Origin: a virus
DNA: 23,357 nucleotides
Virus record (IMG/VR): IMGVR_UViG_3300017977_000100
Coordinates: 1-23,357 of that record
Direction: 5' to 3' (one strand)
Shown here: positions 2,919 to 23,357 of the stretch, one piece after another
Layout of the letters: the number at the start of each line of letters is the position of its first letter
Position numbering within the stretch: the first letter of the stretch is position 1
Made by a program: the position numbers and the translations under genes
Notes under the pieces: generated by a model
What the model saw: the letters and a program-made list of their open reading frames with translations, nothing else
Database searches by the model: none
Told to the model about the DNA's origin: nothing

Positions 2919-2930
2919 AACATTTACCTC

Positions 2931-3761: not shown

Positions 3762-3776
3762 CTAAACCACCTTCTC

Positions 3777-4708: not shown

Positions 4709-4727
4709 TGTTTTCCTTTATTGTTTT

Positions 4728-5213: not shown

Positions 5214-5214
5214 T

Positions 5215-6414: not shown

Positions 6415-7085
6415 TACACTACTCCATCATTTACACTAAAAATTTTAGTTTCAGGGTGATAGTTCACTCCTGTTCCACACTTTCCAGAGTGTAAAACTTT
6501 TACTTCACCATCATCTTTTTTTGAGATAATCTCCCATTCACAGCACATCCAACATGTAAGCGAATCATCATCCTCTTTTCTGACAAGATAATGATTTGTC
6601 TCATCATCAAACCATCTACTTAGCTCTACAACACATAGAGTTGCAATAGATGTTTCAGTTCTATATCTAAACTCTTTCAGCTCTTTTCGATAGGCTGACT
6701 CACAATGTCTTTTCTGCCGTTGGAACTGCTTATTATCTATAAGACCAAGAGCGTAAAGCATCTTTGCGATACGATAAGCCAAATAGTTAACTATACGCCG
6801 AAAGAAGTTCCATACACTTTCATCACGATACTTATATAGATTTGAACTAATCGTCCAGTCTTCTGTTCCAAAAATAAGCGTTCCTCCGTGTTGGTCGTTT
6901 GACACCATCACACTAAACATATATTTAAGAGCATGACCTTTGACAATACTTTTAGAGAGGACAATTAAAAATATCACTGGCCCTGTAACAGCAATCAGTA
7001 GATAAAGAATAGTGTTAACCACCAAAAGAATAAAACCAGCTGTCAATCTTCTCGCTACTCCGACTGTTCCAATATCATTATTCAT
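6414..7085 (-). CDS. Two-transmembrane phage protein with Cys-rich C-terminus, function unknown
   Basis: 223 residues. The N-terminus holds two close hydrophobic spans (about 14-33 and 34-50) with a short turn, like a membrane hairpin. Residues about 68-100 contain GGTLIFGTEDWTISSN and then FFRRIVNYLAY. Around 125-135 is HCESAYRKE. These two blocks recall a small phage family often found near lysis genes, with a G-D-x-x-ET(I/V)S motif and a later HC-x-x-(A/S)-Y-x-x-E motif; that comparison is from memory. The C-terminus has clustered cysteines (CWMCCEW, later GKCG) and may bind metal. It overlaps the preceding lipoprotein gene by eight bases and the sheath start by one. A holin-like or superinfection role is possible but unproven. 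Confidence 0.75.
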   Translation of the reverse strand: MNNDIGTVGVARRLTAGFILLVVNTILYLLIAVTGPVIFLIVLSKSIVKGHALKYMFSVMVSNDQHGGTLIFGTEDWTISSNLYKYRDESVWNFFRRIVNYLAYRIAKMLYALGLIDNKQFQRQKRHCESAYRKELKEFRYRTETSIATLCVVELSRWFDDETNHYLVRKEDDDSLTCWMCCEWEIISKKDDGEVKVLHSGKCGTGVNYHPETKIFSVNDGVV

Positions 7086-7551
7086 GGTCTACCTCTTTCA
7101 TTTCAAAATCAAAACGATAAACTTCCGTAAAACCATCATCTATATCAAGTATTCTAAACGAATGAATTTCATTAAAATGAATTCGTGAGATAGGCACAGA
7201 AACAGAGCATTGGGAATCATTTTTATCAATGCTTATCTCATATATATCAACACTACCAAGCGATTCAATCTCATGCTCCAACATATATGACTTGTTAACA
7301 TCCAATGCAGGTGCTAACCAATCAACTTCTAAGAGATAATCATCATTATTCTCTGCAGTATCATCGGATACAATGGTAGCTGTAACATTACTTTCATTCT
7401 TACTCAACTGGTAAGGTTTTCCAAGCTGCACCGTAACGCTCTCACCATTTGGTAAAGAGTACTCTCCACTCAATTTAATTTTTTCAGACAAACAGCCACT
7501 CAAAATAACGGCTAAACCTGCTAAGATTAAGATTTTATAAATCCACTTCAT
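7078..7551 (-). CDS. Predicted lipoprotein, about 157 residues
   Basis: The start is taken as ATG 7551 because AGGAGG lies eight bases upstream; the frame is also open from a GTG at 7557, which sits too close to that site. The signal peptide MKWIYKILILAGLAVILSGC ends in a clear lipobox (LSGC), so the mature protein should be lipidated at that Cys. The rest is beta-rich and acidic (LSGEYSLPNGESVTVQLGKP, then a series of short strands). No named family is recognised. The gene starts inside the end of the previous lipoprotein gene and its end overlaps the two-TM gene, so the three are co-translated. It could be an outer-membrane exclusion or conversion protein, or part of a lysis or adsorption device. 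Confidence 0.8.
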   Translation of the reverse strand: MKWIYKILILAGLAVILSGCLSEKIKLSGEYSLPNGESVTVQLGKPYQLSKNESNVTATIVSDDTAENNDDYLLEVDWLAPALDVNKSYMLEHEIESLGSVDIYEISIDKNDSQCSVSVPISRIHFNEIHSFRILDIDDGFTEVYRFDFEMKEVDHE

Positions 7552-7795
7552 TATCACTACCTCCTTTTATATTTTTATCTGTTGTATTGACATCTGTAAC
7601 ATTTATGTCATATCGATATGTAACGCTTTTTGCACCAGGGTCCGTAACATCAGATTCATTGCCATTTTCAAACGACTCTGCAATATCTGCCATGTTTGTT
7701 ATCGCTTCACCTAACTTTTTAAAATCATCAACTTCACAACCTGTAACCATTAAGGCAAAAACACCCATCAAAAAGACCATTAAAATTCGTTTCAT
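7535..7795 (-). CDS. Small predicted lipoprotein, 86 residues
   Basis: The frame is open from an ATG at 7807 that overlaps the previous stop, but GGAGG lies five bases before the ATG at 7795, so the latter is chosen. MKRILMVFLMGVFALMVTGC is a textbook lipoprotein signal with lipobox VTGC. The mature part is only about 67 residues, acidic, with a short helix (FKKLGEAITNMADIAESFEN) and a Val/Asn/Thr-rich end. Size and lipobox would suit an o-spanin, but no i-spanin partner is evident. It could also be a conversion or exclusion lipoprotein. It is the first gene of the three-gene block between the fibre genes and the sheath gene. Confidence 0.8.
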   Translation of the reverse strand: MKRILMVFLMGVFALMVTGCEVDDFKKLGEAITNMADIAESFENGNESDVTDPGAKSVTYRYDINVTDVNTTDKNIKGGSDNEVDL

Positions 7796-7806
7796 AAATT
7801 CCTCCA

Positions 7807-8397
7807 TTAACTTGTAATTATTTTTTCCACATGCTCTTTGGAAGCTGTGAATACCTCTGTTGGTGTTCCATGAATACCAACACCAATCTCTTTACCCTCT
7901 TCTATCAGCCGTACAACATCATTAAAAAGGGCTGTATCAATCTTTTGAGATACAAACCTACGATAGAGCCTAATAAGCTTTTTAAAAGAGGTGTGAGCGA
8001 ACTTATACGCCTCTTTTTGTTTTTTGGCTTTATCAAACTCATCCTGTGCCGTCGTACCTAACAACTTAGCTTCATCAGCGAACCAATCAACATCATTGGC
8101 ATTGATAGCATCCTCAACCAAGCCATATTCTTCCATCTGTTCAGAAGACACACCCATACCTGCGATGATGGCTTTAGCTCCTCTTGATTTTTCATCACAA
8201 ACAGCGTTTAACTCTTTAAGATATTGCTTCTTAAGCTCACTTTCCATTGTCTCAATCTCTTCATCAGACAAAGCCACCATGTAGCTCTTGTACCCATGAG
8301 TAGTTTTAACATTTAGAGCGACAATCTCACTGGTCTGATAGAGAACAACATCATCTTTTTTCTGTTTAAAATTTGGGGTTACAAATATTTTCTTCAT
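7807..8397 (-). CDS. Unknown protein following the fibre gene (position of P2 G)
   Basis: 196 residues, cytoplasmic, no signal or membrane span. The N-terminus (about 1-45) is beta-like; the rest is mostly helical with charged segments (EEIETMESELKKQYLKELNA and FAHTSFKKLIRLYRRFVSQK). The ribosome site AAGGAGGA directly follows the stop of the RCC1 fibre gene. In P2 this position is taken by the fibre assembly protein G, so a fibre chaperone is the simplest guess, but no sequence similarity to G or Tfa is recognised. Confidence 0.75.
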   Translation of the reverse strand: MKKIFVTPNFKQKKDDVVLYQTSEIVALNVKTTHGYKSYMVALSDEEIETMESELKKQYLKELNAVCDEKSRGAKAIIAGMGVSSEQMEEYGLVEDAINANDVDWFADEAKLLGTTAQDEFDKAKKQKEAYKFAHTSFKKLIRLYRRFVSQKIDTALFNDVVRLIEEGKEIGVGIHGTPTEVFTASKEHVEKIITS

Positions 8398-8412
8398 GCT
8401 TTTAAATCCTCC

Positions 8413-10110
8413 TTATATTGTTCTAATTGGTCTACGCACATTGGCTGAACCATTTTGTGGGTAGCTCTGTTGATATTCATTGGCTCCCCATCCATAGACA
8501 CGACCATCACTAAGTAACACATTAAAATGAGTAGAAGAAGAGTAGCCACCCTGAGAAATTTGGACGACTTTATCAGCGTTATCAAATGGGATTTGTTTTG
8601 GAGTTGTAGCGTTAGTAGTAGTATTATCTCCTACTTGACCATTGCCATTATAACCCCATGCGAAGAGCGTACCATCTAATTTTCTAGCGATGTAAGTTCT
8701 ATGATATCCGTATGTACCACTTGCAACAGACTGTACATAACTAACATCATTCATAACAAATGTAGGAACAAGTCTATTAGTTGTATCTCCTACACCAAGT
8801 TCACCATAGGCGTTATAGCCTGTCATGTAGAGCCTTCCACTCTCTGTTATATATCCTGAACTACCCATTGAAGCTTTTGATGTAAAAATATCCTTTACAG
8901 GGTCATTATTGTTTTCATGTCCATAGCTTATCTCTATAGGTAATCTTTGGTGTTCTGTATTATTTACACCAAGTTGACCATAGCCGTTATAACCTAGCGT
9001 AAACACACGCCCTGCATCTGTTAGGAAGAGAATAAAATTGTGATAATATGCAGAAGATGAATATCTAGTACCACCTGCTCCAACAATCTTAACTACTTTA
9101 TAATCAGAGATATTGTTTATCTTTTTGAAACCTGAGCTATTCGTTACGCTACCATCACCGAGCTGTCCATGACCGTTATAACCTGTAGCATAGACTGTTC
9201 CATCTTCTGTTAAAATATAACTTGTCGCATTATTTGTTCCAACAGCTAATATATCTTTTGCTTTTTCTAAAATATCGGCTTTAACCCAACTATTTTGACT
9301 TGTTGTATTGCCATTCCCTAGTTGACCAGCACCATTGTGACCAGTCAACCATGCAGAACCATCCTCTTTTAAAATCATCACATGATTATAATCTTGGTGA
9401 TAACCAACTGATGAAGTTGAAAGCTTTGTAACATTTTCAGCTGATTTAACAAGCTTATACTGAATAGCTGTATTTCCAACTCCAAGTTGACCATATCCGT
9501 TATACCCCATTACATAAAGGTCACCATCTTCATAGAGAACAAATAAGTTCCATGTATTGGCATATAATTTTTTAATCTCTACACCATGCTTCTCAACTGA
9601 TTGTGGAATGGTCTGAACACCAGCGTTATCAGTTCCCATACCATTAATAAAGTAACTTGCGTGATTGTAGCCCCAAAACACAAGCTCATTCTCCCATGTA
9701 ACACCTGCCATCCATTGAGCAGGAGCCGAGGTCTCTTCTGTATCAACCAACATCTTAATTCTGTTAAATGCATACCTGTAATATTCAGGGTTTTTACCAC
9801 CTAACTTAGTGGCATCAATACCAGCTCTTACCTCTTTGAGTGTTTTATTTTCAAGCTTTTTAGCATTATCAACCCATACAGGTTTTCCCTCCTGGTCTGT
9901 AACTTCACCATCAACACACTTAATATTATTTGCATTTAATTCATCAATCATCTTTTTAATGTTGCTAAAACGATACTCTTTTTCAACTGCCTTATCATTT
10001 TCCCAGTCATAAAGAGAAATTTCAACTTCACCAGCATCATCCAATGAAAACTTTTCAAGTATCATCATCACTCTATGATTGTTGATAATTGTAATATCAC
10101 CTTTTGTCAT
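8413..10110 (-). CDS. RCC1-type beta-propeller tail fibre / receptor-binding protein
   Basis: 565 residues. Residues 1-145 form a separate N-terminal part that probably docks on the baseplate. From about 147 to 550 there are eight G-(Y/H/W)-N-rich motifs at 147, 202, 257, 310, 373, 431, 486 and 540, best seen in GYNGYGQLGVGNT, GHNGAGQLGNGNT and GYNGHGQLGDGSV. The spacing of 53-63 residues and the motif are those of RCC1 repeats, which fold into a seven-bladed propeller; the first and last copies are worn. The ATG overlaps the previous stop and GGAG precedes it. As the last large protein after I and the DUF4815 protein, it stands where P2 has its fibre gene H, so host receptor binding is the likely role. 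Confidence 0.88.
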   Translation of the reverse strand: MTKGDITIINNHRVMMILEKFSLDDAGEVEISLYDWENDKAVEKEYRFSNIKKMIDELNANNIKCVDGEVTDQEGKPVWVDNAKKLENKTLKEVRAGIDATKLGGKNPEYYRYAFNRIKMLVDTEETSAPAQWMAGVTWENELVFWGYNHASYFINGMGTDNAGVQTIPQSVEKHGVEIKKLYANTWNLFVLYEDGDLYVMGYNGYGQLGVGNTAIQYKLVKSAENVTKLSTSSVGYHQDYNHVMILKEDGSAWLTGHNGAGQLGNGNTTSQNSWVKADILEKAKDILAVGTNNATSYILTEDGTVYATGYNGHGQLGDGSVTNSSGFKKINNISDYKVVKIVGAGGTRYSSSAYYHNFILFLTDAGRVFTLGYNGYGQLGVNNTEHQRLPIEISYGHENNNDPVKDIFTSKASMGSSGYITESGRLYMTGYNAYGELGVGDTTNRLVPTFVMNDVSYVQSVASGTYGYHRTYIARKLDGTLFAWGYNGNGQVGDNTTTNATTPKQIPFDNADKVVQISQGGYSSSTHFNVLLSDGRVYGWGANEYQQSYPQNGSANVRRPIRTI

Positions 10111-10361
10111 ACTATTACTCCAATTTTAATTTTTTGACTTTTTTCCAATGCCAATAAAGAGAGGTTTCCACTCAATGCTTTAGCCTCTTCTATTGATTCA
10201 TTCATCTCATTTTTTAGGTTTTTAAGACCTGTAGTAATTTTTTCGTCAATACCCTCTACATCCTCATCAATTTCAAGAAATGCTTTAATAAGGACTGGTA
10301 TATCATCATCTAACCAATGACCTTTAATGAGTGGGTATTTTCTATTTTTTGTCTGTTGCAT
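10107..10361 (-). CDS. Small fibre-region protein, 84 residues, unknown
   Basis: The start overlaps the stop of the 1011-residue gene (TAATG), with GAGG upstream; the stop overlaps the ATG of the propeller gene. The sequence begins with a compact polar segment (KYPLIKGHWLDDDIPVLIKA) and continues as a helix with heptad character (LKNLKNEMNESIEEAKAL). A connector or trimerising linker between the baseplate protein and the propeller fibre is plausible. It is not similar to any family I recognise. Confidence 0.75.
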   Translation of the reverse strand: MQQTKNRKYPLIKGHWLDDDIPVLIKAFLEIDEDVEGIDEKITTGLKNLKNEMNESIEEAKALSGNLSLLALEKSQKIKIGVIV

Positions 10362-13300
10362 TAGCTCACTATTCCTCTCAGGTTTTTAACTCTTGGTCTA
10401 ATTGTGTCTTTGCTGATTAAAACAATTTTAATTCTTGTTTTTGAGACACCCATATCATCTTTTTTAAAGCATGTCTCAACCCATCCATCACCAATATGAC
10501 GACTCTTATCTCTATCAATATCAAGCTCAACAAACTCACTATTAATCTCAGCGTAAACCTTGACCCCATCAGGTGTTGAATTTAAATCTAAATAAACATC
10601 TAAATTAGAGGCACTTAAAGAGAATTCCCTACTAACATAGGTAGAGCTATTTTTTACTTGACCAATGCCTAAAACAACATCTTTATCAAGTATTGGTGTA
10701 ACATCTCTATCCGTTGTGGTAAAGATTGCACTAAGGATAATTTCACCCGTGTATGTCTCAATGGATGTAAGATTAAATGGACTAATAAGAACTTCCTTAT
10801 TGGCATCAACAAGGTTCGCAATAAACTTAATATTTGTACCAACATAAAGGCTATTGATAGCCATTAAAAAGAGGTCTGTAATATCTTCAACATTTACACG
10901 TCCTATCTCTTTAATCATGTTCTCATCAAACATCGGTTTATGAACTACTAGAGATAAATCCTCTTTTTGGTAGGCTGTCCAAGTTGACGAGTTAGCAGAA
11001 CTCAAAAGAACACCTTCATAAGGTTGATGAGTAATCCAATCATTAGATTCCAAGTCATACGCCCCAAGCCGTGCCGTTGCTACTTTTCCAATCGCATCAC
11101 CAGATTCAATCACTAATGCATATTCAACATCAGATTCAAAAAGTACAGGAACATCAAACTTGAAAGTATTCCAACCAATAGTAAGGCTATCTACTTCATA
11201 ATTTTTCGAGTAGATTGTTTGTTGTAAATCAGGCATCCCAGCCGTTGTTTTACAGACTGTTAGCGTTACATAAGTAGTTGGTTTCTCAATAATATTAAGC
11301 TCTAATTCTGCTACAAATCTATCTTGTGTAAAGAGAATAGTTTGTGCGAGTGGGTCACGCCACCTAATACGTCTAATGATTGTTCTTTGAAGTGGAACAG
11401 CTGACCATATATATTCAACAGTTATACCTGTCGTTTTACCAATTACCTTAATCAGCTTATTACCACTTCTTAATCCTACTGGTGTAGTTATGTATCCATC
11501 AACTCTATATCTACTCTCTTCAATTTGGATAGTGTCAAGCGTTCCAACATGTCTGTCATCAACTACTACATCTACCTGCGTATCATCAAAGGTTTTTGCT
11601 TGAATTCTAAGCCGTGTTGGTGGAACAATGGCACTAGAAGAGCTAACAGATACCATGCTACCACTACTCCAACTACTGCTATATACAACCGTTCTTGCTA
11701 TCCACCTAAAAGTGGACGGTGTAACACTTATTGAGTTAAGTGGTGTATCTGCCTCTATATATTCATTTATTAACCTACCACCACTATTTTTTCTTTGCTC
11801 AATCAAAACACCATTATTCTGATAAGGAAGAGAGATATCAACATCAAAACTAAATTCATGTTGTGTAAAGTCAATGTTTGGGTGAAGCTCTTTTTCTGCA
11901 ATAACTGCATCCTGTTCTATACCCATATCACGCAAGTCATCATCATAAAATGGGTCAACAAATAATTCTCTTGTATTTAATGTTGGGTCAATACTTCTAG
12001 CGTTATTTAGCAGCTCTATTTTTCCTACATTATATTCAAGTGCTTCCATACGCTCATACATTCTCTGTATATCATCAGCTTTGAAAGTTTTTACAAAGTT
12101 AACCTTTAACGATGGCTCTTGACCAAATGAAACGGTAACCTCTGCAAGGGATAAACCTATAGCGTGATTTGGAGCAACAGGCGAGTACTCATCGGCTACC
12201 CCCCTAAGTACTTCAAAAGAGCCATTTCTCGTTAAAATGATTTTGTCAACACGACTAAGATAATATGAGTAATTAATGTAAAAGCTAGTGTTTTCTGCTA
12301 ATCCCTCTAAAGTAAATGCATTACTATTATATTGAACATCCTCTATGTGAGTCTGATAGCGATAGACAACGGTATAAGTTGAACTTGGAGAGGGTTCATT
12401 ACCCAATGGAGACCAATCAACAAAGTCACCATTTTGTACCCAATCCGTACCATTTTTATAGATGGTATCACCCTGTTTTATCTCAAGCACCTCTACAACT
12501 GGCGTGTTGGGTAAAATATCTTTTATCCCTCTATAGCTTCCATGCGTAATAGATTCAGTTGTCTCAACTATTCCTACGATTCTATCAATAGAGGCGATAG
12601 GGTTATGCCTTACCGTATATTCTCCATTGCCTTTAAACACGTTAGGTTCTGCTACTATCTCTCTTTTATCAAGGGCAAATGGTACACGAACTTTTTGTGC
12701 ATAATCAAAGATAAGCTCTTGACCCTCAACGTGTCCATTACCCTCACTAATAGTAATAATATGTTCTTGGTCTAAATCGTCATCACGGTCAAAGGTTGGT
12801 ACCAAGCCATCAACAACGTAATTTCCATTAGCATGATGGTCGTATCGTGCTACAATTTTTCTTGCTCCGTCCAGCTCTGGAGCGATACGCTTCACTGATT
12901 GTAAAATCCCATCAATAAAGGTAAAAGCTGGATAGAACGCCTCACCCTCTTTAATATCATCTTCACTACACCAGCGACCAGTTACTTTTAATCGTTCAGC
13001 ACCGACACTTTTAAATCCAGCTGTACCAATGGCTGGATTTAATAAAGTTGGGTCTTCTTTTGCTGTAACAATTTCCTGTTTAATTGCAGAACCAATAATG
13101 ATTGTATCAATTGGAGAAATTGGAATACTTATAGAAGAGAGAGGGACACCATACCCATTTGAGTAGATAGTTGCTTTTTCTATCTTTGCATTCTCTCCAA
13201 CCTTTTTAATTTCGCCACCCTCCAAAATAGCACCGTCACCAAAAACAGCACCAGCAAAGAGCTTCATATCATGGTGTTGGTAAGATTGCATCTCATTTAG

Positions 13301-13396
13301 CTCTGCACCCTGTATATATCGGTCATCAATAACCAATACTTGCTTATAGCCTTTATTAGGGTCAAAACGGTTATGATACATAGGGTTACTTGTCAT
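10361..13396 (-). CDS. DUF4815-type baseplate/tail fibre protein, 1011 residues
   Basis: The N-terminus has the DUF4815 signature: YHNRFDPNKGYKQVLVIDDR, then AELNEMQSYQHHDMKLFAGA and DGAILEGGEI. The DUF4815-like part extends to roughly residue 480 (ALEYNVGKIELLNN, then RELFVDPFYDDDLRD). The remainder (about 500-1011) is beta-rich, with Ser-rich and aromatic patches, and may form carbohydrate-binding or Ig-like domains. DUF4815 proteins occur in tail fibre and baseplate regions of several phages. It follows the I and 184-residue genes closely and comes before the propeller gene. Whether it is the fibre shaft or a baseplate wedge is not clear. Confidence 0.85.
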   Translation of the reverse strand: MTSNPMYHNRFDPNKGYKQVLVIDDRYIQGAELNEMQSYQHHDMKLFAGAVFGDGAILEGGEIKKVGENAKIEKATIYSNGYGVPLSSISIPISPIDTIIIGSAIKQEIVTAKEDPTLLNPAIGTAGFKSVGAERLKVTGRWCSEDDIKEGEAFYPAFTFIDGILQSVKRIAPELDGARKIVARYDHHANGNYVVDGLVPTFDRDDDLDQEHIITISEGNGHVEGQELIFDYAQKVRVPFALDKREIVAEPNVFKGNGEYTVRHNPIASIDRIVGIVETTESITHGSYRGIKDILPNTPVVEVLEIKQGDTIYKNGTDWVQNGDFVDWSPLGNEPSPSSTYTVVYRYQTHIEDVQYNSNAFTLEGLAENTSFYINYSYYLSRVDKIILTRNGSFEVLRGVADEYSPVAPNHAIGLSLAEVTVSFGQEPSLKVNFVKTFKADDIQRMYERMEALEYNVGKIELLNNARSIDPTLNTRELFVDPFYDDDLRDMGIEQDAVIAEKELHPNIDFTQHEFSFDVDISLPYQNNGVLIEQRKNSGGRLINEYIEADTPLNSISVTPSTFRWIARTVVYSSSWSSGSMVSVSSSSAIVPPTRLRIQAKTFDDTQVDVVVDDRHVGTLDTIQIEESRYRVDGYITTPVGLRSGNKLIKVIGKTTGITVEYIWSAVPLQRTIIRRIRWRDPLAQTILFTQDRFVAELELNIIEKPTTYVTLTVCKTTAGMPDLQQTIYSKNYEVDSLTIGWNTFKFDVPVLFESDVEYALVIESGDAIGKVATARLGAYDLESNDWITHQPYEGVLLSSANSSTWTAYQKEDLSLVVHKPMFDENMIKEIGRVNVEDITDLFLMAINSLYVGTNIKFIANLVDANKEVLISPFNLTSIETYTGEIILSAIFTTTDRDVTPILDKDVVLGIGQVKNSSTYVSREFSLSASNLDVYLDLNSTPDGVKVYAEINSEFVELDIDRDKSRHIGDGWVETCFKKDDMGVSKTRIKIVLISKDTIRPRVKNLRGIVS

Positions 13397-13398
13397 TG

Positions 13399-13953
13399 TT
13401 AAAACCTCAATATAAAGTTACTAACACGGTAACCACTGCTTAAATTCATTGGCGAGATATTTTGACCAACAATTTTTTCAATCTTTTCAGCATCAACATT
13501 TTCAACAGGATAAAAAGTTTGATATCCAATCTCTTCAGGTATTTCAACAGCTGTCACAACAACCCTTTGACGTATTGTAAAAGAGGCTAAATCCACCCCT
13601 CTTTGTCTGAACCCAACCAAAATAGTGTCGGTTGGTTCTGTTGTTTTACTGTAGAATCCACTATCATCCTCTATAAGGTTGGTTGCGTCCTGTGGCTCAC
13701 CCTTTGCATTTACAATAACACCTTTACCATCTCTATAAAAGCCCTGCTCTTTTTTAATAAACTCTTTAGAATGTTCAGGCAAAAACCCAAAGACTTTTTC
13801 AAGCTTACCATCATATACAGGAGCCTCGTTATAACCCCACTCGTCTTCACTATCTGCTAACGCCAGATGAAGAGGCATTTTAAACACGGCTAAAGCTATA
13901 GCTCTATGTGCATCAGCATCAAACACAACAGGTGTATTAATCTCAGTACTCAT
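13399..13953 (-). CDS. Unknown baseplate/tail protein, 184 residues
   Basis: The start overlaps the I stop (TAATG) and the end lies two bases before the DUF4815 gene, so it belongs to the baseplate/fibre block. No signal peptide or membrane span. The middle has Gly/Asp-rich text (GFYRDGKGVIVNAKGEP) and the C-terminal half is beta-like (TILVGFRQRGVDLASFTIRQ). No family recognised. The position between I and the fibre genes suggests a baseplate adaptor for the fibres. Confidence 0.75.
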   Translation of the reverse strand: MSTEINTPVVFDADAHRAIALAVFKMPLHLALADSEDEWGYNEAPVYDGKLEKVFGFLPEHSKEFIKKEQGFYRDGKGVIVNAKGEPQDATNLIEDDSGFYSKTTEPTDTILVGFRQRGVDLASFTIRQRVVVTAVEIPEEIGYQTFYPVENVDAEKIEKIVGQNISPMNLSSGYRVSNFILRF

Positions 13954-14957
13954 TAATTTTCTCCTTTTTCATTTTCATTTTCAAAAGACGTAGAAACTAA
14001 CCTATATCTTCCATCCCATTCACCAGCCCATGCACCAAACCATGCACGGTTAAGCGTTACGCTGTCCAGCTCTGTATCGTGAGTTGAAGCTTTAGGGAAA
14101 CAGGTAGAGGTGATATATTCCTCTTCGGTATCAGATACACCCAATTCAAGATGTACAGAAGTATCAATATCAATACTGTAAGATTTAGCTGATATGGCAT
14201 ATCTTCCATCCCACTTACCAGCCCACGCACCGAGCCAAGATTTAGGCATTGTTGACAATGGTTCATATTCATAGATTCCATCCGTTACACTACAGGTAAG
14301 ATTATCTTTATGACCAAGAACTAAAGAGCTGTATCTTATAGAGAAATAATCTACATTTACAGGTTCAACAAAAAGCTCAATTGAAGTGGCTTCATAGTTA
14401 ATTGATTTGGATGTGAAAAAATCAATTTGTTTAAAAGAGACTTTAATACCATGCAACAGGTCACCATCATTGTCAGAGATAATCGCACAACTGTATTTAT
14501 CTCTACTCAATTTCAATCTAGGTGATACATTTCCATCATCAATTGAAACCAGCTTACTTCTAGTGTTTTTAAAATGCTTGATATTTTCAATAAAAGGGAA
14601 AACATTCGGATTAGTGGTTTTAATACCAAATTGACCACGAGCGAAACGCTCTCTATTTTGATACCACTCTTTAAGTTCACCCTCTGTTAGAAAGAAATTG
14701 ATTGCTTTATCAATAGCACCTACCGTTCCAGTAATTGAGCGAGTTCTTTTTATTAGGTCTAAAAACTCTCTACTCTCTTTCTCACTCATGCCTTTAATGC
14801 TCACACCATAATCAAACGCGATATGAGGCAATACAGTTACATGGCATTTCAGAGGGTCAACAGTTAATGAGCTATAATCCTCTTTTGTTCTTCTATCAAT
14901 AAAATCAGAAAAACGCTGATCCAGTAAGCTTGAATTTGATGGTAGTAACTGGCTCAT
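13953..14957 (-). CDS. I: Tail protein I (P2 gpI-like baseplate protein) with duplicated C-terminal motif
   Basis: 334 residues, longer than P2 I (about 176). Residues 1-105 are I-like: LLPSNSSLLDQRFSDFIDRR near the start, then a calculated-helix stretch with PHIAFDYGVSIKGMSEKESR and ITGTVGAIDKAINFF. Beyond about 110 the protein carries an extension. It holds two copies of the motif W-(L/F)-GAWAG-(K/E)-WDGRY at 240-253 and 305-318, separated by a 50-residue polar beta-type insert. Genes J (overlapping by 4) and the 184-residue protein flank it. I builds the baseplate and links J to fibres; the repeated Trp-rich motif may form a docking or surface module. Confidence 0.85.
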   Translation of the reverse strand: MSQLLPSNSSLLDQRFSDFIDRRTKEDYSSLTVDPLKCHVTVLPHIAFDYGVSIKGMSEKESREFLDLIKRTRSITGTVGAIDKAINFFLTEGELKEWYQNRERFARGQFGIKTTNPNVFPFIENIKHFKNTRSKLVSIDDGNVSPRLKLSRDKYSCAIISDNDGDLLHGIKVSFKQIDFFTSKSINYEATSIELFVEPVNVDYFSIRYSSLVLGHKDNLTCSVTDGIYEYEPLSTMPKSWLGAWAGKWDGRYAISAKSYSIDIDTSVHLELGVSDTEEEYITSTCFPKASTHDTELDSVTLNRAWFGAWAGEWDGRYRLVSTSFENENEKGEN

Positions 14958-16063
14958 GTATTAGCCTTTTCAAAGAGTAGAGTGAGTGATTTTAATTCAA
15001 TAATTTCTGTATCAGAAACAATCACATCTTCAAAACTGCTAAGTACTCTAAACACACCGTCAAGGTGACATTTTCTAATAAAGTCACTTCTTGTAAAGTG
15101 TTCACCGATGAAAAAGTTATCTTGGAAATTAGCTCTTATCTTACTTTCAATTCTTTCCTTATCAGACAAATCAAAAAGCTCTATAGTAGCTACTGCGTTT
15201 ATCTCTTTTTTAGGGGCTTCAATAACCCTTATTACATCGTTTAAAGAACGCTTTAAACGCTCAGTTACAAGGCTATAAACGCGTTGCTTCATAACTTCAT
15301 CAACACCATCAAAAGAGGCTATATAAATATCAATTTCAAGAGCTTGTGAAGAATGAATAACAACATCATCAACCCTACTATCAGCCGTAAAGGCGAAGTA
15401 AGCGTAAGCATCATCCGTTCCAGTTGTGTTGTACTGGCTACGGCTTAATATAATTCTTAGCCTGTATCTCTCATCTTTCTCTACATCTTTACCGTTTGCA
15501 AAATTTGTTATCTGTTTAATGGAATGCACATAAGAGAGGTCGGTCATTAATGTATCAAGCACAATATCATTACTTTCAGACATAACGCTAAACTGCCCAG
15601 GGATTGTAACGGATGATTGACCGTTAGGAACAGTAACATCATAAACCGTTTCAGCCCAGTACTGATTATTTTGAATAGCTGTTATTCTTGTACCTTTTGG
15701 TATCATAAAAGTACCATTGCTTTGAGCTGTTAGAAAAAAAGTAAATTGTGCGTATGGGTACTCTCCACTATCTCTTATAACAGTTCTATCAATACCAATA
15801 TTATCAAGGTCGCTATAAGTTGCTGTAGTGGGTAAAAAGCTTAAGATTGTGTGATTTTTATCAGCTTGGTTGTGGAGCTGTCTAAGGGTCATTACCCTTA
15901 TTTTTTTCATATATGGGTCAGACTCTAAAGGATACCAATCCTCACCAAACACCTTTTCTTTAGCAAGTTTTATATTTTCTTGCAATAGTTCATCAAAGCT
16001 TTTAACATTTACGGCTTGTGGTGTACCCAGTTGTTTAATGGCTGTTTGAATATCATTTGTCAT
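14954..16063 (-). CDS. J: Baseplate assembly protein J (P2 gpJ-like)
   Basis: 369 residues, similar in layout to Baseplate_J proteins. The N-terminal part has DNIGIDRTVIRDSGEYPYAQ and a beta region with IPKGTRITA; the middle carries the block VEKDERYRLRIILSR and the YFAFTADSRVDDVVIHSS segment; the C-terminal part ends in helical INAVATIELF and later strands. J wedges form the inner baseplate ring with W and I. The stop overlaps I by four bases and the start overlaps W by four, as in P2-like phages. Confidence 0.9.
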   Translation of the reverse strand: MTNDIQTAIKQLGTPQAVNVKSFDELLQENIKLAKEKVFGEDWYPLESDPYMKKIRVMTLRQLHNQADKNHTILSFLPTTATYSDLDNIGIDRTVIRDSGEYPYAQFTFFLTAQSNGTFMIPKGTRITAIQNNQYWAETVYDVTVPNGQSSVTIPGQFSVMSESNDIVLDTLMTDLSYVHSIKQITNFANGKDVEKDERYRLRIILSRSQYNTTGTDDAYAYFAFTADSRVDDVVIHSSQALEIDIYIASFDGVDEVMKQRVYSLVTERLKRSLNDVIRVIEAPKKEINAVATIELFDLSDKERIESKIRANFQDNFFIGEHFTRSDFIRKCHLDGVFRVLSSFEDVIVSDTEIIELKSLTLLFEKANT

Positions 16064-16353
16064 ACTGCCATCTCCAACGATACTGGATTACCGATACCGA
16101 TATCCACATTAAACAGAACAATACCAGCTGTTAAATTTTTAATATCATAAGAAGCACCCATAAAGTTCAATCTAGGGTCAAAGCTACAGGCATCTTTAAA
16201 AGCTCTACGCATCTCAATAACATAATCTGTATTGAATGGTCGGTGCTTTAATTTGTGTGCAAATGTGCCATAAATATAGTTCCCTATAACTGTACCACGA
16301 GGAGTGCCAAAAGCATCCATAAAACTTTCCTCAGGTGTAGCTAAATAACTCAT
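16060..16353 (-). CDS. W: Baseplate wedge protein W (gp25-like)
   Basis: 97 residues, about the size of P2 W and T4 gp25. The conserved pieces are the opening TPRGTVIGNYIYGTFAHKL (G-T-x-x-G-x-x-x-Y-G), FNTDYVIEMRRAFKDA and then FDPRLNF with the C-terminal strands ending in GNPVSLEMAV. Small gp25-like domains sit next to J and V. It overlaps both neighbouring genes by four bases. Confidence 0.9.
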   Translation of the reverse strand: MSYLATPEESFMDAFGTPRGTVIGNYIYGTFAHKLKHRPFNTDYVIEMRRAFKDACSFDPRLNFMGASYDIKNLTAGIVLFNVDIGIGNPVSLEMAV

Positions 16354-16883
16354 CTTGGTACTGCCACAGAATGATTTTGAACAGCATGTTGATGGTCGGT
16401 AAGATTACCTTTTTCATCATGGATTTTTTTAGATACTTTTAGATTTTTAGTTATCTCAACCTCACCATCAAGTATGATTTTTGGAGCTTTACAATTTATT
16501 TTTGAAGAAGATTTAATATTAATTTCACAAGGGGTATCAAAAGTTACTTTTTTCTTTATTGCATCATGAATATAAGTAGTTCCATCCTTAACCCACCTAA
16601 CAATCTTATTTTCATTAATATCATTTGGTAAAGGAACAGATTCATAAGCCGTACCTATTTCGACATAGGCATTTTCATTATCTGCTCCATTTGGATTATG
16701 TACGATTGATTGGTCATTTATAGAGGGTGGCGTAAACTCTTTATAGAACTTAGTTACGCGTGTTCTTACCTCTAGCCAAGGTGTTGAGCGTCCGTCAACA
16801 TCAACTTTTACCTCGCACCGTTTTCCCTCACCAAGAGGGATATAACGAATATCAGTAATCAAACCCTCTTGTTCAAATTTCAC
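16350..16883 (-). CDS. V: Baseplate spike protein V (P2 gpV-like)
   Basis: 177 residues. The N-terminus forms an OB-like domain (LITDIRYIPLGEGKRCEVKV, then WLEVRTRVTKFYKEFTPP). The C-terminal part is a beta-helix-like repeat region (CEINIKSSSKINCKAPKIIL, then VEITKNLKVSKKIHDEKGN). The tail end has a histidine cluster, DHQHAVQNH, resembling the HxH iron-binding tip seen in P2 gpV, which sharpens the spike that pierces the membrane. Its ATG overlaps the upstream gene by four bases. The position just before W and J is as in P2. Confidence 0.88.
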   Translation of the reverse strand: MKFEQEGLITDIRYIPLGEGKRCEVKVDVDGRSTPWLEVRTRVTKFYKEFTPPSINDQSIVHNPNGADNENAYVEIGTAYESVPLPNDINENKIVRWVKDGTTYIHDAIKKKVTFDTPCEINIKSSSKINCKAPKIILDGEVEITKNLKVSKKIHDEKGNLTDHQHAVQNHSVAVPR

Positions 16884-17251
16884 TTACCAGCCTTTTTATC
16901 GGTTTCATAGTAGATAACCAACTGTTTTAATTGGTTCTCTATTTTTTCGTAACATACTTTTGTGTTTTCACGCTCAATTTGATTAATTTCAGAAACTATA
17001 TTTAACAGTTCCCTATTATGCTTTTCTGCCTCTTCTTGAAGCTTCAAAGCATTCTTTTGATTTTCAACTGCCTTTTCTAAGGATTCAGCAAACTTTTTAT
17101 TTGTTGCTCTATCACGAATGACGATATAGAGCAACACGCTAGAGACAATCAGAAGAATAAGTACAGTTGCACCGAGAACACCAGCTTGAAGATATACTTC
17201 AGCAGTATTTGCCACCGTGTCACTCACTGCTCCCTCTATTGCTAACGCCAT
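16880..17251 (-). CDS. Single-pass membrane protein with long coiled coil, unknown (possible holin-class)
   Basis: 123 residues, the first gene of the leftward operon. After a short polar N-terminus there is one hydrophobic span (about 24-46, LGATVLILLIVSSVLLYIVI), then a highly charged helix of about 70 residues with heptads (KFAESLEKAVENQKN, LKLQEEAEKHNRELL) and a short tail. Similar small TM/coiled-coil proteins lie near holin or tail genes in various phages, but no family is recognised. It could be a holin, an i-spanin-like part or a tail assembly anchor. The start is supported by AAGGAA about ten bases upstream. Confidence 0.75.
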   Translation of the reverse strand: MALAIEGAVSDTVANTAEVYLQAGVLGATVLILLIVSSVLLYIVIRDRATNKKFAESLEKAVENQKNALKLQEEAEKHNRELLNIVSEINQIERENTKVCYEKIENQLKQLVIYYETDKKAGK

Positions 17252-19468: not shown

Positions 19469-20479
19469 ATGAACGATAATACAGAACTAGCATCCTTAAA
19501 AGAACAGCTAGATATACTTTCTGTTGCAAAGATGTATGGAGAAGTAAAAAAATCAGGTAGTAACTACTGCTACAAAAATGATAAAAGCATAGTTTTCAAT
19601 CCATCAAAACAGATATTCTCAAACTTTAATGGGGATATCACAGGTGGAAGCGTGTTAGACTTAGTTTGTTACATGGAAAAACTAAACTTGCACGATGGTA
19701 TTAACCGACTCAAAGAGCTTTCAGGGGTTGATACATATAAGCCAACTAAAACTAGGCTACTAGAAAGAAAAAAGAAACAGGTAAAGCCTGTCAACTTCGA
19801 TAATCTGCATAAATATTCAGAGAGAGACCTCCAAAGAGGGAAAACGCTCAAACCATTTACATATGAAGAAGAAAACAAAACTCACTTAATGGTTCAAAGC
19901 CATTTCAAAAAGTTGTTTGAAGCATCAATATTCCCACTGAGTTTTAAATCAAAGTTCGATTATCTGCACAATAAGATACTTGGATATGATGACTTTTTTA
20001 GATGCCCTAGTATTATTATCCGTGACAGTACAGGTAAGATTGTTGATAAAGTAGCGTATAGACCAAAGAAGCCAGACCAGTATGACGACTGGTCAGAACC
20101 AAAGTATATACATAAGAACGCAAATAATCGAGGAGACGACTTTCTGTATCCATTTCAATCAGAGATGGAGAAGATTATCCATAGAGAAAAATATATCATT
20201 GTTGGTGAAGGAATTAAAAATAGCCTAAATGGCTTATTGTACAGCGTTCCATTTATCACCACTGGTGGCTCTTCGGTATATGCCGATGAAAGACTCATAG
20301 TATACATAAAAGACCTTACCCAGCAAGGGTATGGGATTATCTGTATGTTCGATGGGGACAAAGCAGGCAAAAACGGATTCAACGCTTTTCAAGAAGCCAT
20401 GGGAATGAATCTTGAAAACTATCTAAGCTTTCAATCCAACTTAGACTTTGTTGACTACCTCCAAGAGGAGTCAAAATGA
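19469..20479 (+). CDS. TOPRIM-type primase with degenerate CHC2-like zinc finger
   Basis: 336 residues. Residues about 30-65 align by eye to the CHC2 zinc finger of DnaG-like primases (NYCYKNDKSIVFNPSKQIFS, then a GGSVLDLV end). Only one of the zinc ligands (Cys34) is left; the second Cys pair is replaced (FSNFNGDITGG). The C-terminal TOPRIM domain (about 240-330) has the catalytic Glu in VGEGIKNS (Glu247) and the DxD in MFDGDKAGK (Asp295, Asp297). The segment between (about 100-240) is probably the catalytic core linker. It ends in an ATGA overlap with the helicase gene. Primase and helicase together should start phage DNA synthesis at the nearby origin. Confidence 0.88.
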   Translation: MNDNTELASLKEQLDILSVAKMYGEVKKSGSNYCYKNDKSIVFNPSKQIFSNFNGDITGGSVLDLVCYMEKLNLHDGINRLKELSGVDTYKPTKTRLLERKKKQVKPVNFDNLHKYSERDLQRGKTLKPFTYEEENKTHLMVQSHFKKLFEASIFPLSFKSKFDYLHNKILGYDDFFRCPSIIIRDSTGKIVDKVAYRPKKPDQYDDWSEPKYIHKNANNRGDDFLYPFQSEMEKIIHREKYIIVGEGIKNSLNGLLYSVPFITTGGSSVYADERLIVYIKDLTQQGYGIICMFDGDKAGKNGFNAFQEAMGMNLENYLSFQSNLDFVDYLQEESK

Positions 20480-22281
20480 ATAACATTGATAAAAAGCTTG
20501 AAAAAATCAAGCAAAAAGCTCAAGCATCGTTAACCACAGATGATGACAAGCATAACGATGTAAAAAAATACATCGATGAAGCCAACGATATAAGGGAGCG
20601 AAACAAGCTCCACAACGAAGAAGAGGTTATCAAGATTTCAAAAGATTTTGATAAAGCAGTTCATGGTATCAATGAAACATTTGAGACATCGGACAAGATG
20701 TCAATAAAAGATAAACTTGAACTACTCGAAGAGGCATACATGAAGTATGCAAGTAAAAAAGCATCACTTGATAGACTTGGTAGCGAAACACTATTCTTCG
20801 ACTCTATTACAGACACCTATGTCAGGGTGTCATGGCATGAGTATGAAGATATACAGGGTAATAAAAATCAAAGGTTGAGAACAGACAGGTTTAAACCTGC
20901 TGTAATTAAGAAATTTATTGACCTCGACTCAAAAAGAAAGATAGGCATACATATTGAGTCCAAAAAGGTCAATGTCATTATGAGGAACTTTAGACCATAT
21001 ATTAAAGAATTTGAGCCATCAAAGCCTAAATTCTATGGTGATTTCTTCAACACCTATACACCAAATGGATTCCTAGATGTAAAGGTTGAGAACACTTTAA
21101 ACCTATCGAAGTTCACAAGTGTAACCCTGCCTATAAGATATCCTCACATCAATGCGTTGCTGGAAAATATCGCCCCTTTTGAGGGAGAGAGAGTGTTTAT
21201 GTTGAACTGGTTAAGTACAATACTAAATACCTCTCAAAAGACGAGAACAGCAATCATTTTAAAAGGTATTCAGCGTACTGGTAAAGGTGTATTCTCATCA
21301 AAAATTATAGAGTATGCCATGAATGAGGCGAACTGCTTCACAGCAACCAACGCCAACCTATCGGACAACTTCAATAACTACTTAGAGGATAAGTTATTCA
21401 TAAAGTTCGATGAAGTCAAAGGTGATTTCCATAAAGACAAAGATATCGCAAACAAAATAAAACTAATCGTATCTGAAGAGAATATATCAATTCGGTCAAT
21501 GCATACAAACCCCTATATGATTCGTTTCTACGCAAACTGTATATTTCTGTCCAATGAAGAGCTACCTATACCAATGGATCAGAGTGATGAGAGGCTCTCC
21601 GTTATTGAAACGAGGTCAAAAACACTAGCAGAAGTAGCTGAAGAAAAATTCAATCTTGAAATCAGAGAGTTTATTCAGCTGATAGAAGAAGAAAGAGACG
21701 AATTCATAATTCACCTAAAAATGTGCAAATACAACAAGCAGTTGGCGAGTAGCACTATAAAGAACAAGACAAAGAAAGCCATTCAGGACGCTACTGCGAC
21801 CACTCAATCTATCCTAAAAACAGCTTTCAGGGCGAAAGACTACGAAACGATAGACGAAATGCTCATTGAAGCGATAGAGGATAGCCAATACGAAGTTACC
21901 ATCAAGGGCGAAAAAGAAGTGCTTGTTGAAAATCCAGACGGAAGCCATAAGGTCAAGAAACCTATACCTTTTACACAAAACAACGAGACTATGAGACAAC
22001 ACTTCATGCAAGAAGTTGAATCGGGTCAGATATCAAACACATCGCTCAAATGGTTCTCTATAGTCATGAACATAGAGCATATCTTAAAAAGTGACCTAAA
22101 GTTTGGGAAGTTCTGGAACCTCATCCTCAGCTCACCAGTAAGCGTAAAATTGAAAGCTGCTGAGTCACAGAAGATAGAGAAATTCAGAACAGTATCTCTA
22201 CATGAAGAGATATCAAACTTCAAGTTTAATGGCACAGATTGGACTTATACAGGCAAAAAAACAGCCGAGCCTATGCAGTAG
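20476..22281 (+). CDS. SF3-type / DUF5906-like replicative helicase
   Basis: 601 residues. The N-terminal 1-100 are helical and charged. From about 240 the ATPase core begins: Walker A in GIQRTGKG (264-271, with Gly instead of the usual Ser/Thr after Lys, as in many DUF5906 proteins), Walker B in LFIKFDEVKG (Asp312, Glu313), and a sensor/arginine block NCIFLSNEELPIP with Asn360 and DERL (Arg373). This arrangement is that of virus and P4-type SF3 helicases. The C-terminal 400-601 is helical with a basic region. Translation is coupled to the primase by ATGA. The 3' end runs directly into the iteron region, as for plasmid and P4-like replication genes. Confidence 0.88.
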   Translation: MNNIDKKLEKIKQKAQASLTTDDDKHNDVKKYIDEANDIRERNKLHNEEEVIKISKDFDKAVHGINETFETSDKMSIKDKLELLEEAYMKYASKKASLDRLGSETLFFDSITDTYVRVSWHEYEDIQGNKNQRLRTDRFKPAVIKKFIDLDSKRKIGIHIESKKVNVIMRNFRPYIKEFEPSKPKFYGDFFNTYTPNGFLDVKVENTLNLSKFTSVTLPIRYPHINALLENIAPFEGERVFMLNWLSTILNTSQKTRTAIILKGIQRTGKGVFSSKIIEYAMNEANCFTATNANLSDNFNNYLEDKLFIKFDEVKGDFHKDKDIANKIKLIVSEENISIRSMHTNPYMIRFYANCIFLSNEELPIPMDQSDERLSVIETRSKTLAEVAEEKFNLEIREFIQLIEEERDEFIIHLKMCKYNKQLASSTIKNKTKKAIQDATATTQSILKTAFRAKDYETIDEMLIEAIEDSQYEVTIKGEKEVLVENPDGSHKVKKPIPFTQNNETMRQHFMQEVESGQISNTSLKWFSIVMNIEHILKSDLKFGKFWNLILSSPVSVKLKAAESQKIEKFRTVSLHEEISNFKFNGTDWTYTGKKTAEPMQ

Positions 22282-22305
22282 GTTCTATCACTCTTAGATA
22301 GAACC
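22281..22305. repeat. 9-bp perfect inverted repeat at the helicase stop
   Basis: GGTTCTATC (22281-22289) and GATAGAACC (22297-22305) with a 7-base loop. The first base is the last base of the stop codon. No T-run follows, so it is more likely an origin structure or transcript end of another kind than a classic terminator. A partial match, GTTCTAT, recurs at the far side of the iterons (22614-22620). Confidence 0.6.
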
Positions 22306-22307
22306 AC

Positions 22308-22384
22308 TAAAAACACTCCATAAACATCCTAGAAACACTATAGAAACACATTAGAAACGGGTTAGAAACACTATAAAAACACTT
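22308..22384 (+). repeat. Left iteron array: seven 11-bp units
   Basis: Seven contiguous units of exactly 11 bases, consensus TAGAAACACTA. Exact or near units are at 22330, 22341, 22352 (TAGAAACGGGT) and 22363; weaker ones (TAAAAACACTC, CATAAACATCC and TAAAAACACTT) are at 22308, 22319 and 22374. The 11-base spacing puts all sites on one face of the helix, as for initiator-binding iterons. Confidence 0.8.
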
Positions 22385-22532
22385 ATAAATCCCACAATAT
22401 AAGAGTTTACTACTTTTATGTTAATATTGTATTTTTATTTTTACACTCTAAGATTTTTTTTCAAAATTATATATATTAAATTTAAAAAATACCATCAAAT
22501 CCCTATATTATGGGATTTACTAGTAATAATCT
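22385..22532. other. AT-rich origin centre with stem-loop
   Basis: About 150 bases of very AT-rich DNA between the opposed iteron arrays, a candidate melting zone. At 22497-22518 AAATCCC-TATATTAT-GGGATTT is a perfect 7-bp inverted repeat. A related AAATCCCACAATATA copy is at 22387-22401, whose partner on the opposite strand is AAATCCCATAATATA from the stem-loop. Confidence 0.6.
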
Positions 22533-22576
22533 TAGTGTTTCTAACCCGTTTCTAACCCGTTTCTAACCCGTTTTTT
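22533..22576 (-). repeat. Right iteron array: four inverted 11-bp units
   Basis: On the minus strand: TAGAAACACTA (22533-22543), TAGAAACGGGT (22544-22554 and again 22555-22565) and a partial AAAAAACGGGT (22566-22576). Units are contiguous, 11 bases each, and point against the left array. Further AGTGG-T-rich 11-base units follow to 22610, mirroring CCACTAAAAA at 22304-22313. Confidence 0.8.
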
Positions 22577-22679
22577 TATCTAATTTTAGTGGTTTTTTAG
22601 TGGTTTTAGTAAAGTTCTATTAGGGAAGAGTTAGTTTTTAAAATTGGGTATACTTTTATAAAAAACTAGGAGTTTAGTT

Positions 22680-23081
22680 TTGGAGACATTTTCAAATGGA
22701 GCTATCAGCTTCAATTACGATACAGAGGAGGAGCTTGTCGACTCAATGCTTATGGTTGCAGGTTTTACGAGGGATTCTTTTGCTTTATACATGGGCATAG
22801 AACCCGATTATTTAGCCAAGAACCCCTTATGGGTCAAGAGATACCTCATTGACACAATAAGCCTTAATTTGGAGCATCTAGGCTACGTGATGGAGGACTC
22901 ACGCCAAAAGGGTATGCTGTCAGAATATGAGGCAGAGGTACAACGTATTAGCGAGAAAGCATTAGGTGCTGACCATATCCAACAACCGATAATTATAAAT
23001 AGCAATAAGATACTAAGTAAGGATGGCATACTTAGAATATCTATACTTTCAAACATAACCAGTGAGCTTAAAAACATATAA
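22680..23081 (+). CDS. Unknown early protein, 133 residues, downstream of the origin
   Basis: The TTG start is favoured by AGGAG eight bases upstream. A candidate -10 (TATACT, 22649-22654) lies just before it. The protein is helical and acidic in the first half; residues 29-50 (GFTRDSFALYMGIEPDYLAK) have the feel of a helix-turn-helix. The end is Ile/Leu-rich (KILSKDGILRISILSNIT). No family recognised. It may be a replication accessory or regulator, or the first gene of a further early block beyond the window. Confidence 0.65.
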   Translation: METFSNGAISFNYDTEEELVDSMLMVAGFTRDSFALYMGIEPDYLAKNPLWVKRYLIDTISLNLEHLGYVMEDSRQKGMLSEYEAEVQRISEKALGADHIQQPIIINSNKILSKDGILRISILSNITSELKNI

Positions 23082-23357
23082 ACATACAATATCCCATATC
23101 CCATATTTACAGAATATAAAGGATTTTATGTTTCTATGTATTTATACATAAAAACTTATTCACGCTTGCTCCAAACAACAGTGTGAATAACTATTCTTTA
23201 AAAAATAATCATAACTAAATATTATATAAGCAGATGTGAATAAAGTCCCACATACAGGGTTGCATGTGAATAACTAATCTTAAACATGTTACATTATGTT
23301 AATATGTAGACTATTAACTATTCTTTAAGTAGTTCTTAAGGTTAGTTTTATTATACA
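23082..23357. other. AT-rich non-coding right end with DnaA-box-like sites
   Basis: No gene is seen in these 276 bases. Four TTATTCAC octamers occur: 23156-23163 (plus strand), and 23183-23190, 23236-23243 and 23266-23273 (minus strand, each TTATTCACA). TTATTCACA differs from the E. coli DnaA box at one base and resembles the Campylobacterota form. AACTATTCTTTAA-type repeats recur at 23189-23201 and 23318-23330. Confidence 0.55.

What the first reader, a model, noticed from the sequence alone, without database searches (positions are those of the whole stretch)
22281..22620. Inverted 11-bp iteron arrays form a likely replication origin
Seven units on the left and four on the right, each exactly 11 bases, face each other across an AT-rich centre. 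Outer elements (GTTCTAT, CCACTAAAAA) and the AAATCCCA-AATATA boxes are mirrored too, so the whole 340 bases act as a large imperfect inverted repeat. It lies directly after primase and helicase genes. The helically phased, opposed layout suggests bidirectional loading of an initiator, possibly the SF3 helicase, and plasmid-like maintenance. I do not recall this arrangement from a described phage of this host group.
Basis: partly seen in the sequence, partly recalled or inferred. Interest (0 to 1): 0.85.

Follow-up and report, generated by a model that had tools for sequence, protein, structure and literature searches.

The report
Iteron replication origin beside hairpin telomere
A 340-base stretch of two facing rows of 11-base repeats, right after a DNA-unwinding-enzyme gene, is almost certainly the replication start site of a small linear DNA element with closed hairpin ends that lives in Sulfurimonas-type bacteria and encodes a phage-like contractile tail but apparently no phage head.

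Summary
Window 22306-22382 carries seven 11-bp units (NNTAGAAACAC). Window 22535-22611 carries four clear units in the opposite orientation plus two degenerate ones in register. Between them lie 150 bp with 82% AT. The region is an inverted repeat of itself (E 2e-18), and lag-11 periodicity exceeds every shuffle.

Eleven relatives found by the adjacent DUF5906 (SF3-type) helicase all have an array directly 3' of that gene; in nine both arrays are present in full. The core differs between loci (AGAAAC, AGGAAC, AGGAAT) but matches on both sides of each locus (permutation p 5e-5). Three distant, integrase-linked relatives without protelomerase, and phage NrS-1, have unrelated iterons in the same place. 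The array therefore travels with the helicase, which points to a Rep/iteron origin like those of SaPI Rep and SCCmec Cch2. Binding and replication were not tested.

Outside the finding, all seven records that reach the far end encode a protelomerase there, and one (27,145 bp) ends in palindromes on both sides. The host element is a hairpin-ended linear replicon with a contractile tail and no detectable head genes. The origin lies about 1 kb from one telomere. Verdict: a new variant of a known kind in an unusual replicon.

The parts
22306..22382 (+). left iteron array: seven 11-bp units, consensus NNTAGAAACAC
   Evidence: lag-11 z 5.7
22535..22578 (-). right iteron array: four 11-bp units in opposite orientation (GTTAGAAACGG/AC)
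   Evidence: lag-11 z 5.5
22579..22611 (-). outer continuation of the right array in the same 11-bp register, degenerate (CTAAAAAACCA, TACTAAAACCA)
22384..22533 (.). AT-rich centre (82% AT), presumed melting region
   Evidence: 76-83% AT in most relatives, 69% in L023
22387..22401 (+). inner box AAATCCCACAATATA at the left edge of the centre, mirrored on the right
   Evidence: relatives carry CCCTATATATAGGG-type palindromes at the same places
22497..22518 (-). inner box/palindrome AAATCCCTATATTATGGGATTT at the right edge of the centre
22281..22305 (.). hairpin GGTTCTAT..ATAGAACC starting at the last base of the helicase stop codon; its right arm is also the outer mirror of 22614-22620
22594..22620 (.). 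outer mirror of 22298-22313 (TTTTTAGTGG, GTTCTAT)
   Evidence: pair I4
20476..22281 (+). DUF5906 (SF3-type) helicase, proposed initiator; closest solved relative NrS-1 PrimPol C-terminal region
   Evidence: PF19263 E 3e-21; PDB 6k9e/6k9c E 7e-20; Foldseek top hit 6k9e
19469..20479 (+). DnaG-type primase (CHC2 zinc finger, weak Toprim), overlaps the helicase gene start
   Evidence: PF01807 E 1.5e-5
22680..23081 (+). conserved small ORF after the origin, function unknown, mostly helical model
23156..23273 (.). four TTATTCAC boxes (23156 +; 23183, 23236, 23266 -) in the presumed subtelomere; match the Sulfurimonas denitrificans DnaA-box consensus HHATTCACA
   Evidence: PMC5043019

Best explanation
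The stretch 22281-22620 is the vegetative/plasmid replication origin of a hairpin-ended linear element. Shown by sequence: two opposed arrays of 11-bp iterons flank an 82% AT centre directly 3' of a DUF5906 helicase gene; this layout is conserved while iteron sequence changes in step on both sides; and related records that reach the far end encode a protelomerase there. Inferred: the helicase itself, probably through its C-terminal domain, binds each array; one hexamer is assembled on each side, facing each other; the AT-rich centre is melted; the DnaG-type primase from the same operon primes both forks; and host polymerase copies the element. Forks run to the telomere about 1 kb to the right and about 25 kb to the left. 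The replicated telomere junctions are then resolved by the element's protelomerase into hairpins. The working model is the SaPI Rep / SCCmec Cch2 type of initiator-helicase origin.
For: Array directly 3' of the helicase in the window and all 11 relatives with 53-71% helicase identity; right array absent only where the contig ends (L009) and cut short in L004. Same core letter class on both sides in 11 of 11 loci; left-right profile distance below 20,000 permutations, p 5e-5. Core class changed at least twice on the helicase tree, including between the window and its sister L023. Distant DUF5906 helicases (24-25% identity) in integrase-linked elements of two genomes with no protelomerase match have iterons GTGATACTAAA or AGGGTCTAAAG in both orientations plus CCCTATTTTAGGG palindromes within about 200 bases of the stop codon. 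NrS-1 shows GGTTACACTTT repeats in both orientations after its primase-helicase. Among the three distant elements, the pair sharing an iteron keeps 82% identity in the last 100 residues, the pairs that differ 61-62%, while the ATPase core is 79-86% in all. Strongest periodic array in each of eight near-complete records. Precedent: SaPI Rep recognises iterons directly downstream of its gene through its C-terminal domain; isolated Cch2 C-terminal domain binds iterons 3' of its gene (PMC7581432).
Against: No replication, binding or copy-number data. The helicase model is poor in the ATPase part (pLDDT under 50 at 279-381), so the C-terminal domain as DNA reader is not shown; residues about 60-140 also diverge with the iteron. 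Three of six distant DUF5906 genes (L035, L038, L039) show no clear array downstream. GC skew follows gene orientation and is uninformative. No sequence similarity to SaPI Rep was seen in the PDB search. The window itself is truncated on the left and holds no protelomerase.
Confidence: 0.82

Rival explanations
1. The arrays are a partition centromere bound by a ribbon-helix-helix protein working with the ParA-like ATPase, as in ParMRC parC (two clusters of 11-bp iterons) or ParA/RHH systems.
For: The near-complete relatives encode a ParA-like protein followed by a ~100-aa gene, there is no periodic array beside that operon, and 11-bp iterons in two clusters are known from parC (own knowledge). 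In N15 the centromere sites lie away from the par operon (own knowledge).
Against: The array is 20-25 kb from the par operon but always touches the helicase gene. NrS-1 and the integrase-linked elements have arrays after the helicase, and no relative of this ParA was found on the contigs of the latter. The arrays face each other across a very AT-rich centre; parC repeats are direct.
Confidence: 0.06
2. An operator or regulatory site: repeats bound by a repressor to control the downstream small ORF or the replication operon.
For: A conserved small ORF begins shortly after the right array in the relatives; an initiator bound to iterons could also autoregulate.
Against: Two arrays of 44-80 bases in opposite orientation around an 89-166 base AT-rich centre are far larger than a usual operator; the layout persists in elements whose downstream gene is different.
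Confidence: 0.04
3. The origin is the subtelomeric cluster of DnaA boxes, and the 11-bp array is an accessory or copy-control (incompatibility) locus.
For: TTATTCAC boxes occur 3-6 times in the last 600 bases and practically nowhere else, and match the S. denitrificans DnaA-box consensus.
Against: The boxes lie at both telomeres, including the protelomerase end, and are interleaved with telomere-like TAACNGTTA motifs, which suggests an end-related role.
Confidence: 0.06
4. A structured RNA or DNA hairpin (terminator, packaging or resolution site) that only looks like iterons.
For: Large imperfect inverted repeat; single-strand fold z -9.9; a hairpin starts at the helicase stop codon.
Against: The exact 11-base phase and repeated identical units are not needed for a hairpin; in relatives unit numbers differ between the sides. 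No Rfam match.
Confidence: 0.02

Closest known systems
SaPI Rep helicase and its origin (Staphylococcus pathogenicity islands)
   Same: Initiator helicase whose origin of short iterons lies directly downstream of its gene; [quoted passage not shown] That SaPI iterons flank an AT-rich region is from own knowledge.
   Different: No sequence similarity detected here; here 11-bp phased opposed arrays, CCCTATATAGGG-type boxes, and a hairpin-ended linear element in Campylobacterota.
SCCmec Cch2 helicase and putative origin
   Same: Iterons 3' of the helicase gene; C-terminal domain binds them (PMC7581432).
   Different: Three 5-bp iterons (AAGTG) in one 23-bp region, not two large opposed arrays; primase is a different enzyme.
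Nitratiruptor phage NrS-1 primase-polymerase/helicase region
   Same: Closest solved homologue of the helicase; array of GGTTACACTTT with 11/12-base steps and both orientations directly after the gene.
   Different: PrimPol fused to the helicase; array lies within an annotated ORF; classic phage with head and terminase genes.
N15/PY54 telomere phages
   Same: Protelomerase, hairpin ends and linear plasmid-prophage logic.
   Different: Their repA gene alone is a minimal circular replicon (PMC10612081), so no separate 3' origin is needed; they have complete heads. Protelomerase similarity is distant (31% to phiHAP-1 over 28% of the length).
ParMRC parC centromere of plasmid R1
   Same: 11-bp iterons in two clusters (own knowledge).
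   Different: Direct not inverted; next to the par operon; no AT-rich melting region.

Membership tests
Initiator-helicase / 3' iteron origin (SaPI Rep, SCCmec Cch2 type) | AAA+/SF3 helicase gene with Walker A | tested here: met
   PF19263 E 3e-21, GIQRTGKGVF motif invariant
Initiator-helicase / 3' iteron origin (SaPI Rep, SCCmec Cch2 type) | Iterons directly downstream of the helicase gene | tested here: met
   window and all 11 relatives
Initiator-helicase / 3' iteron origin (SaPI Rep, SCCmec Cch2 type) | C-terminal domain of the helicase reads the iterons | tested here: inconclusive
   C-terminal divergence tracks iteron type in three distant elements, but so does that of residues 60-140; no binding data
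Initiator-helicase / 3' iteron origin (SaPI Rep, SCCmec Cch2 type) | Autonomous replication from the site | not testable with these tools
   needs a replicon assay
Initiator-helicase / 3' iteron origin (SaPI Rep, SCCmec Cch2 type) | Homology to SaPI Rep or Cch2 | tested here: inconclusive
   profile search of PDB chains found only NrS-1 at E <= 1
N15-type telomere phage | Protelomerase gene | tested here: met
   in all seven related records that reach the far end (PF16684 over cut-off in three, A2 profile in four); not in the truncated window
N15-type telomere phage | Palindromic/hairpin ends | tested here: met
   in relatives: G003 both ends, arms 52; ends of L003, L025, L026, near end of L027; not reached in the window
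N15-type telomere phage | Origin inside repA | tested here: not met
   array is outside the helicase gene, 3' of it
N15-type telomere phage | Head, portal and terminase genes | tested here: not met
   PF04860, PF03237, PF05065 absent in 10 records; all ORFs over 280 aa of G003, which has palindromes at both ends, have other roles
RHH centromere (parC/parS) | Array next to the par operon | tested here: not met
   more than 20 kb apart, at opposite ends
Campylobacterota DnaA origin | DnaA boxes in the array region | tested here: not met
   TTATTCAC boxes only at 23156-23273 of the window, none in 22281-22620

The most novel reading that the evidence does not exclude
A family of 25-28 kb linear plasmids with hairpin telomeres in Campylobacterota carries a contractile-tail (tailocin-like) module without any head. 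It replicates from a lineage-specific, helicase-coevolving opposed-iteron origin placed about 1 kb from one telomere. The origin module is shared, with swapped iterons, by integrated elements and phages of the same host group.
Probability: 0.6. Interest if true: 0.8.

Novelty: new variant of a known kind. Interest (0 to 1): 0.62.

Why it matters
It gives a compact, testable initiator-origin system in a bacterial phylum with few characterised replicons, with natural variants in which iteron and helicase differ together. Swapping C-terminal domains and iterons between loci would map how these ring helicases find and open DNA. It also places the origin on what seems to be an undescribed kind of replicon: a telomere-bearing linear plasmid that encodes a phage tail but no head. 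No paper in the searched library joined protelomerase with Campylobacterota, and none of the ten listed by a tailocin/protelomerase/linear-plasmid search mentioned tailocins.

Tried and rejected
A scan of viral contigs for three phased AGAAACAC units found, besides a family member, only two contigs where similar repeats lie inside open frames (L050, just before a DnaB-like helicase gene; L049); not members, possibly convergent. Helicase search in plasmid records: nothing. Other arrays beside ParA-RHH: none. GC skew to locate the origin: follows gene strand, uninformative. AlphaFold model of the helicase with 12 sequences: mean pLDDT 63, ATPase part unusable. Discriminating residues between AGAAAC and AGGAAC loci: four weak columns, not interpreted. 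Rfam on the window: no hit. L038 was first read on the wrong strand and was repeated.

Full report
WHAT IS THERE. The window is a 23,357-base virus record from IMG/VR, truncated on the left. A leftward tail module (tape measure, sheath, baseplate) occupies about 1-17,250. A CI/LexA-like repressor follows, then a rightward operon ending in a DnaG-type primase (19469-20479) and a DUF5906 helicase (20476-22281). Directly after the helicase stop codon lie seven 11-bp units (cores at 22310 to 22376). Then comes a 150-bp centre with 82% AT, then four opposed units (22537 to 22570) and two degenerate ones in register. Lag-11 self-match is 0.54 and 0.51 against 0.31 +/- 0.04 in dinucleotide shuffles. 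The region aligns with its own complement at E 2.3e-18, and these are the only strong periodic arrays in the window.

CONSERVATION. The helicase finds eleven relatives: L003-L007 and L023-L026 in viral contigs, L008 in a Sulfurimonas MAG, L009 in a Helicobacteraceae MAG. All have an 11-bp array directly downstream of the helicase. Nine also have the full opposed array; in L004 the contig ends after two right units, in L009 before it. Centres are 89-166 bases long and 69-83% AT. The core is AGAAAC in eight loci and AGGAAC/AGGAAT in four, and within a locus both arrays use the same class (11 of 11 with both arrays). Left-right profile distance is smaller than in 20,000 random pairings of arrays from different loci (p 5e-5). 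On the helicase tree the class changed at least twice; the window and its sister L023 differ. The simplest reading is that one protein reads both arrays and that its specificity drifts.

WHICH GENE DOES THE ARRAY TRAVEL WITH? A search of 228 genomes of the L008 host family gave six distant DUF5906 matches besides the two known. Three of them (L036, L037, L040; 24-25% identity) lie in elements with a tyrosine integrase and in genomes with no protelomerase match. Each has within about 200 bases of the stop codon five iterons in one orientation and one in the other, 12-13 bases apart within clusters, plus two CCCTATTTTAGGG-type palindromes. The iterons are GTGATACTAAA (L036, L037) or AGGGTCTAAAG (L040), unrelated to the window's. 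The other three (L035, L038, L039) show no clear array. NrS-1, whose primase-helicase is the nearest solved relative, has GGTTACACTTT units in both orientations just after that gene. So the array goes with the helicase, not with the telomere or partition genes. Among L036/L037/L040 the last 100 helicase residues are 82% identical between the two that share an iteron and 61-62% otherwise, while the ATPase core is 79-86% throughout. Residues 60-140 behave likewise, so the reading domain is not settled.

MECHANISM. Shown: position, opposed phased layout, AT-rich centre, coevolution of the two sides, and association with one helicase family. Inferred: helicase binding, two facing hexamers, melting of the centre, priming by the neighbouring DnaG-type primase. 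[quoted passage not shown] It works like those; membership by homology was not shown. N15-type phages differ: repA alone is a replicon (PMC10612081).

THE REPLICON. PF16684 protelomerase is over cut-off in G003, G004 and G007:C236, and a profile of these finds it in all four further records. The profile matches ResT and TelK-type protelomerase chains in the PDB at 4e-6 and 1e-5. It always lies at the end opposite the origin, with ParA-like and ~100-aa genes close by. G003 (27,145 b) ends on both sides in perfect palindromes with arms of 52. L003 ends in one with arms of 127; L025, L026 and L027 end in or near shorter ones sharing TAACNGTTATTTA. An assembler artefact at a palindrome would still need a palindrome there. 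TTATTCAC boxes, which match the S. denitrificans DnaA-box consensus HHATTCACA (PMC5043019), cluster 3-6 times in the last 600 bases and occur once at most elsewhere in the loci tested. The window has four of them at 23156-23273, so it probably ends a few hundred bases short of the telomere.

NO HEAD. In G003, complete by its two palindromic ends, every ORF over 280 aa has a non-head role: protelomerase, PAPS reductase, tape measure, sheath, gpJ-like baseplate, primase, helicase. Portal, terminase and HK97-type capsid models find nothing in ten records. Gene order is the same in all seven records that span from protelomerase to helicase. A linear tailocin-like plasmid, or a satellite that borrows heads, fits; neither is proven.

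RIVALS. A centromere is the strongest structural look-alike (11-bp iterons, ParA plus a possible RHH gene), but distance and the NrS-1/integrase-linked cases argue against it. DnaA boxes at the telomeres could take part in initiation, but their presence at both ends suggests an end function. Operator and RNA readings explain neither size nor phase.

LIMITS. All evidence is comparative. Hosts are inferred from two binned contigs. The window's own left end is unseen.

Noticed in passing
G003 = L016+L017; also G004, G007:C236, G008-G011: 24-28 kb linear elements with protelomerase at one end, origin at the other, a contractile-tail and lysis module, and no detectable head, portal or terminase genes: linear tailocin-like plasmids or head-borrowing satellites.
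   Followed up: partly
window 23156-23273; L003 9000-9150; L012 3060-3190; L027 3005-3105; L028 1-125: Subtelomeric TTATTCACA boxes (DnaA-box-like) interleaved with TAACNGTTA motifs at both telomere sides, almost absent elsewhere.
   Followed up: partly
L017 3955-4090 (- strand) and the same place in G002, G004, G007:C236, G009, G010, G011: Conserved stretch after the ParA-RHH pair, AACAGTCGCTC..GAGCTAAC..ACGG..TTTTGGTCGAGC..CCGTATTATATCC, possibly a structured RNA; the ACGG/CCGT-flanked stem looks compensated by eye, but the automatic alignment supports only two covarying pairs and Rfam has no match there.
   Followed up: partly
window 22387-22401 and 22497-22518; L004 7946; L007 7944 and 8058; L036 2455 and 2531; L040 2447 and 2543: CCCTATATATAGGG-type boxes flank the centre even in distant elements whose iterons are unrelated; binding factor unknown.
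   Followed up: partly
L032 5072-5290: NrS-1 phage: GGTTACACTTT array after the primase-helicase, inside annotated gene NRS1_29, a candidate NrS-1 origin.
   Followed up: partly
L050 6290-6450, L049 13150-13260: GAAACAC-like repeats inside open reading frames of two other viral contigs, in L050 just before a DnaB-like helicase gene.
   Followed up: no
L058 1-5515 (G237:C3): Short contig in a genome of the Sulfurimonas family with protelomerase directly followed by tail genes (gpD-like, tape measure).
   Followed up: no
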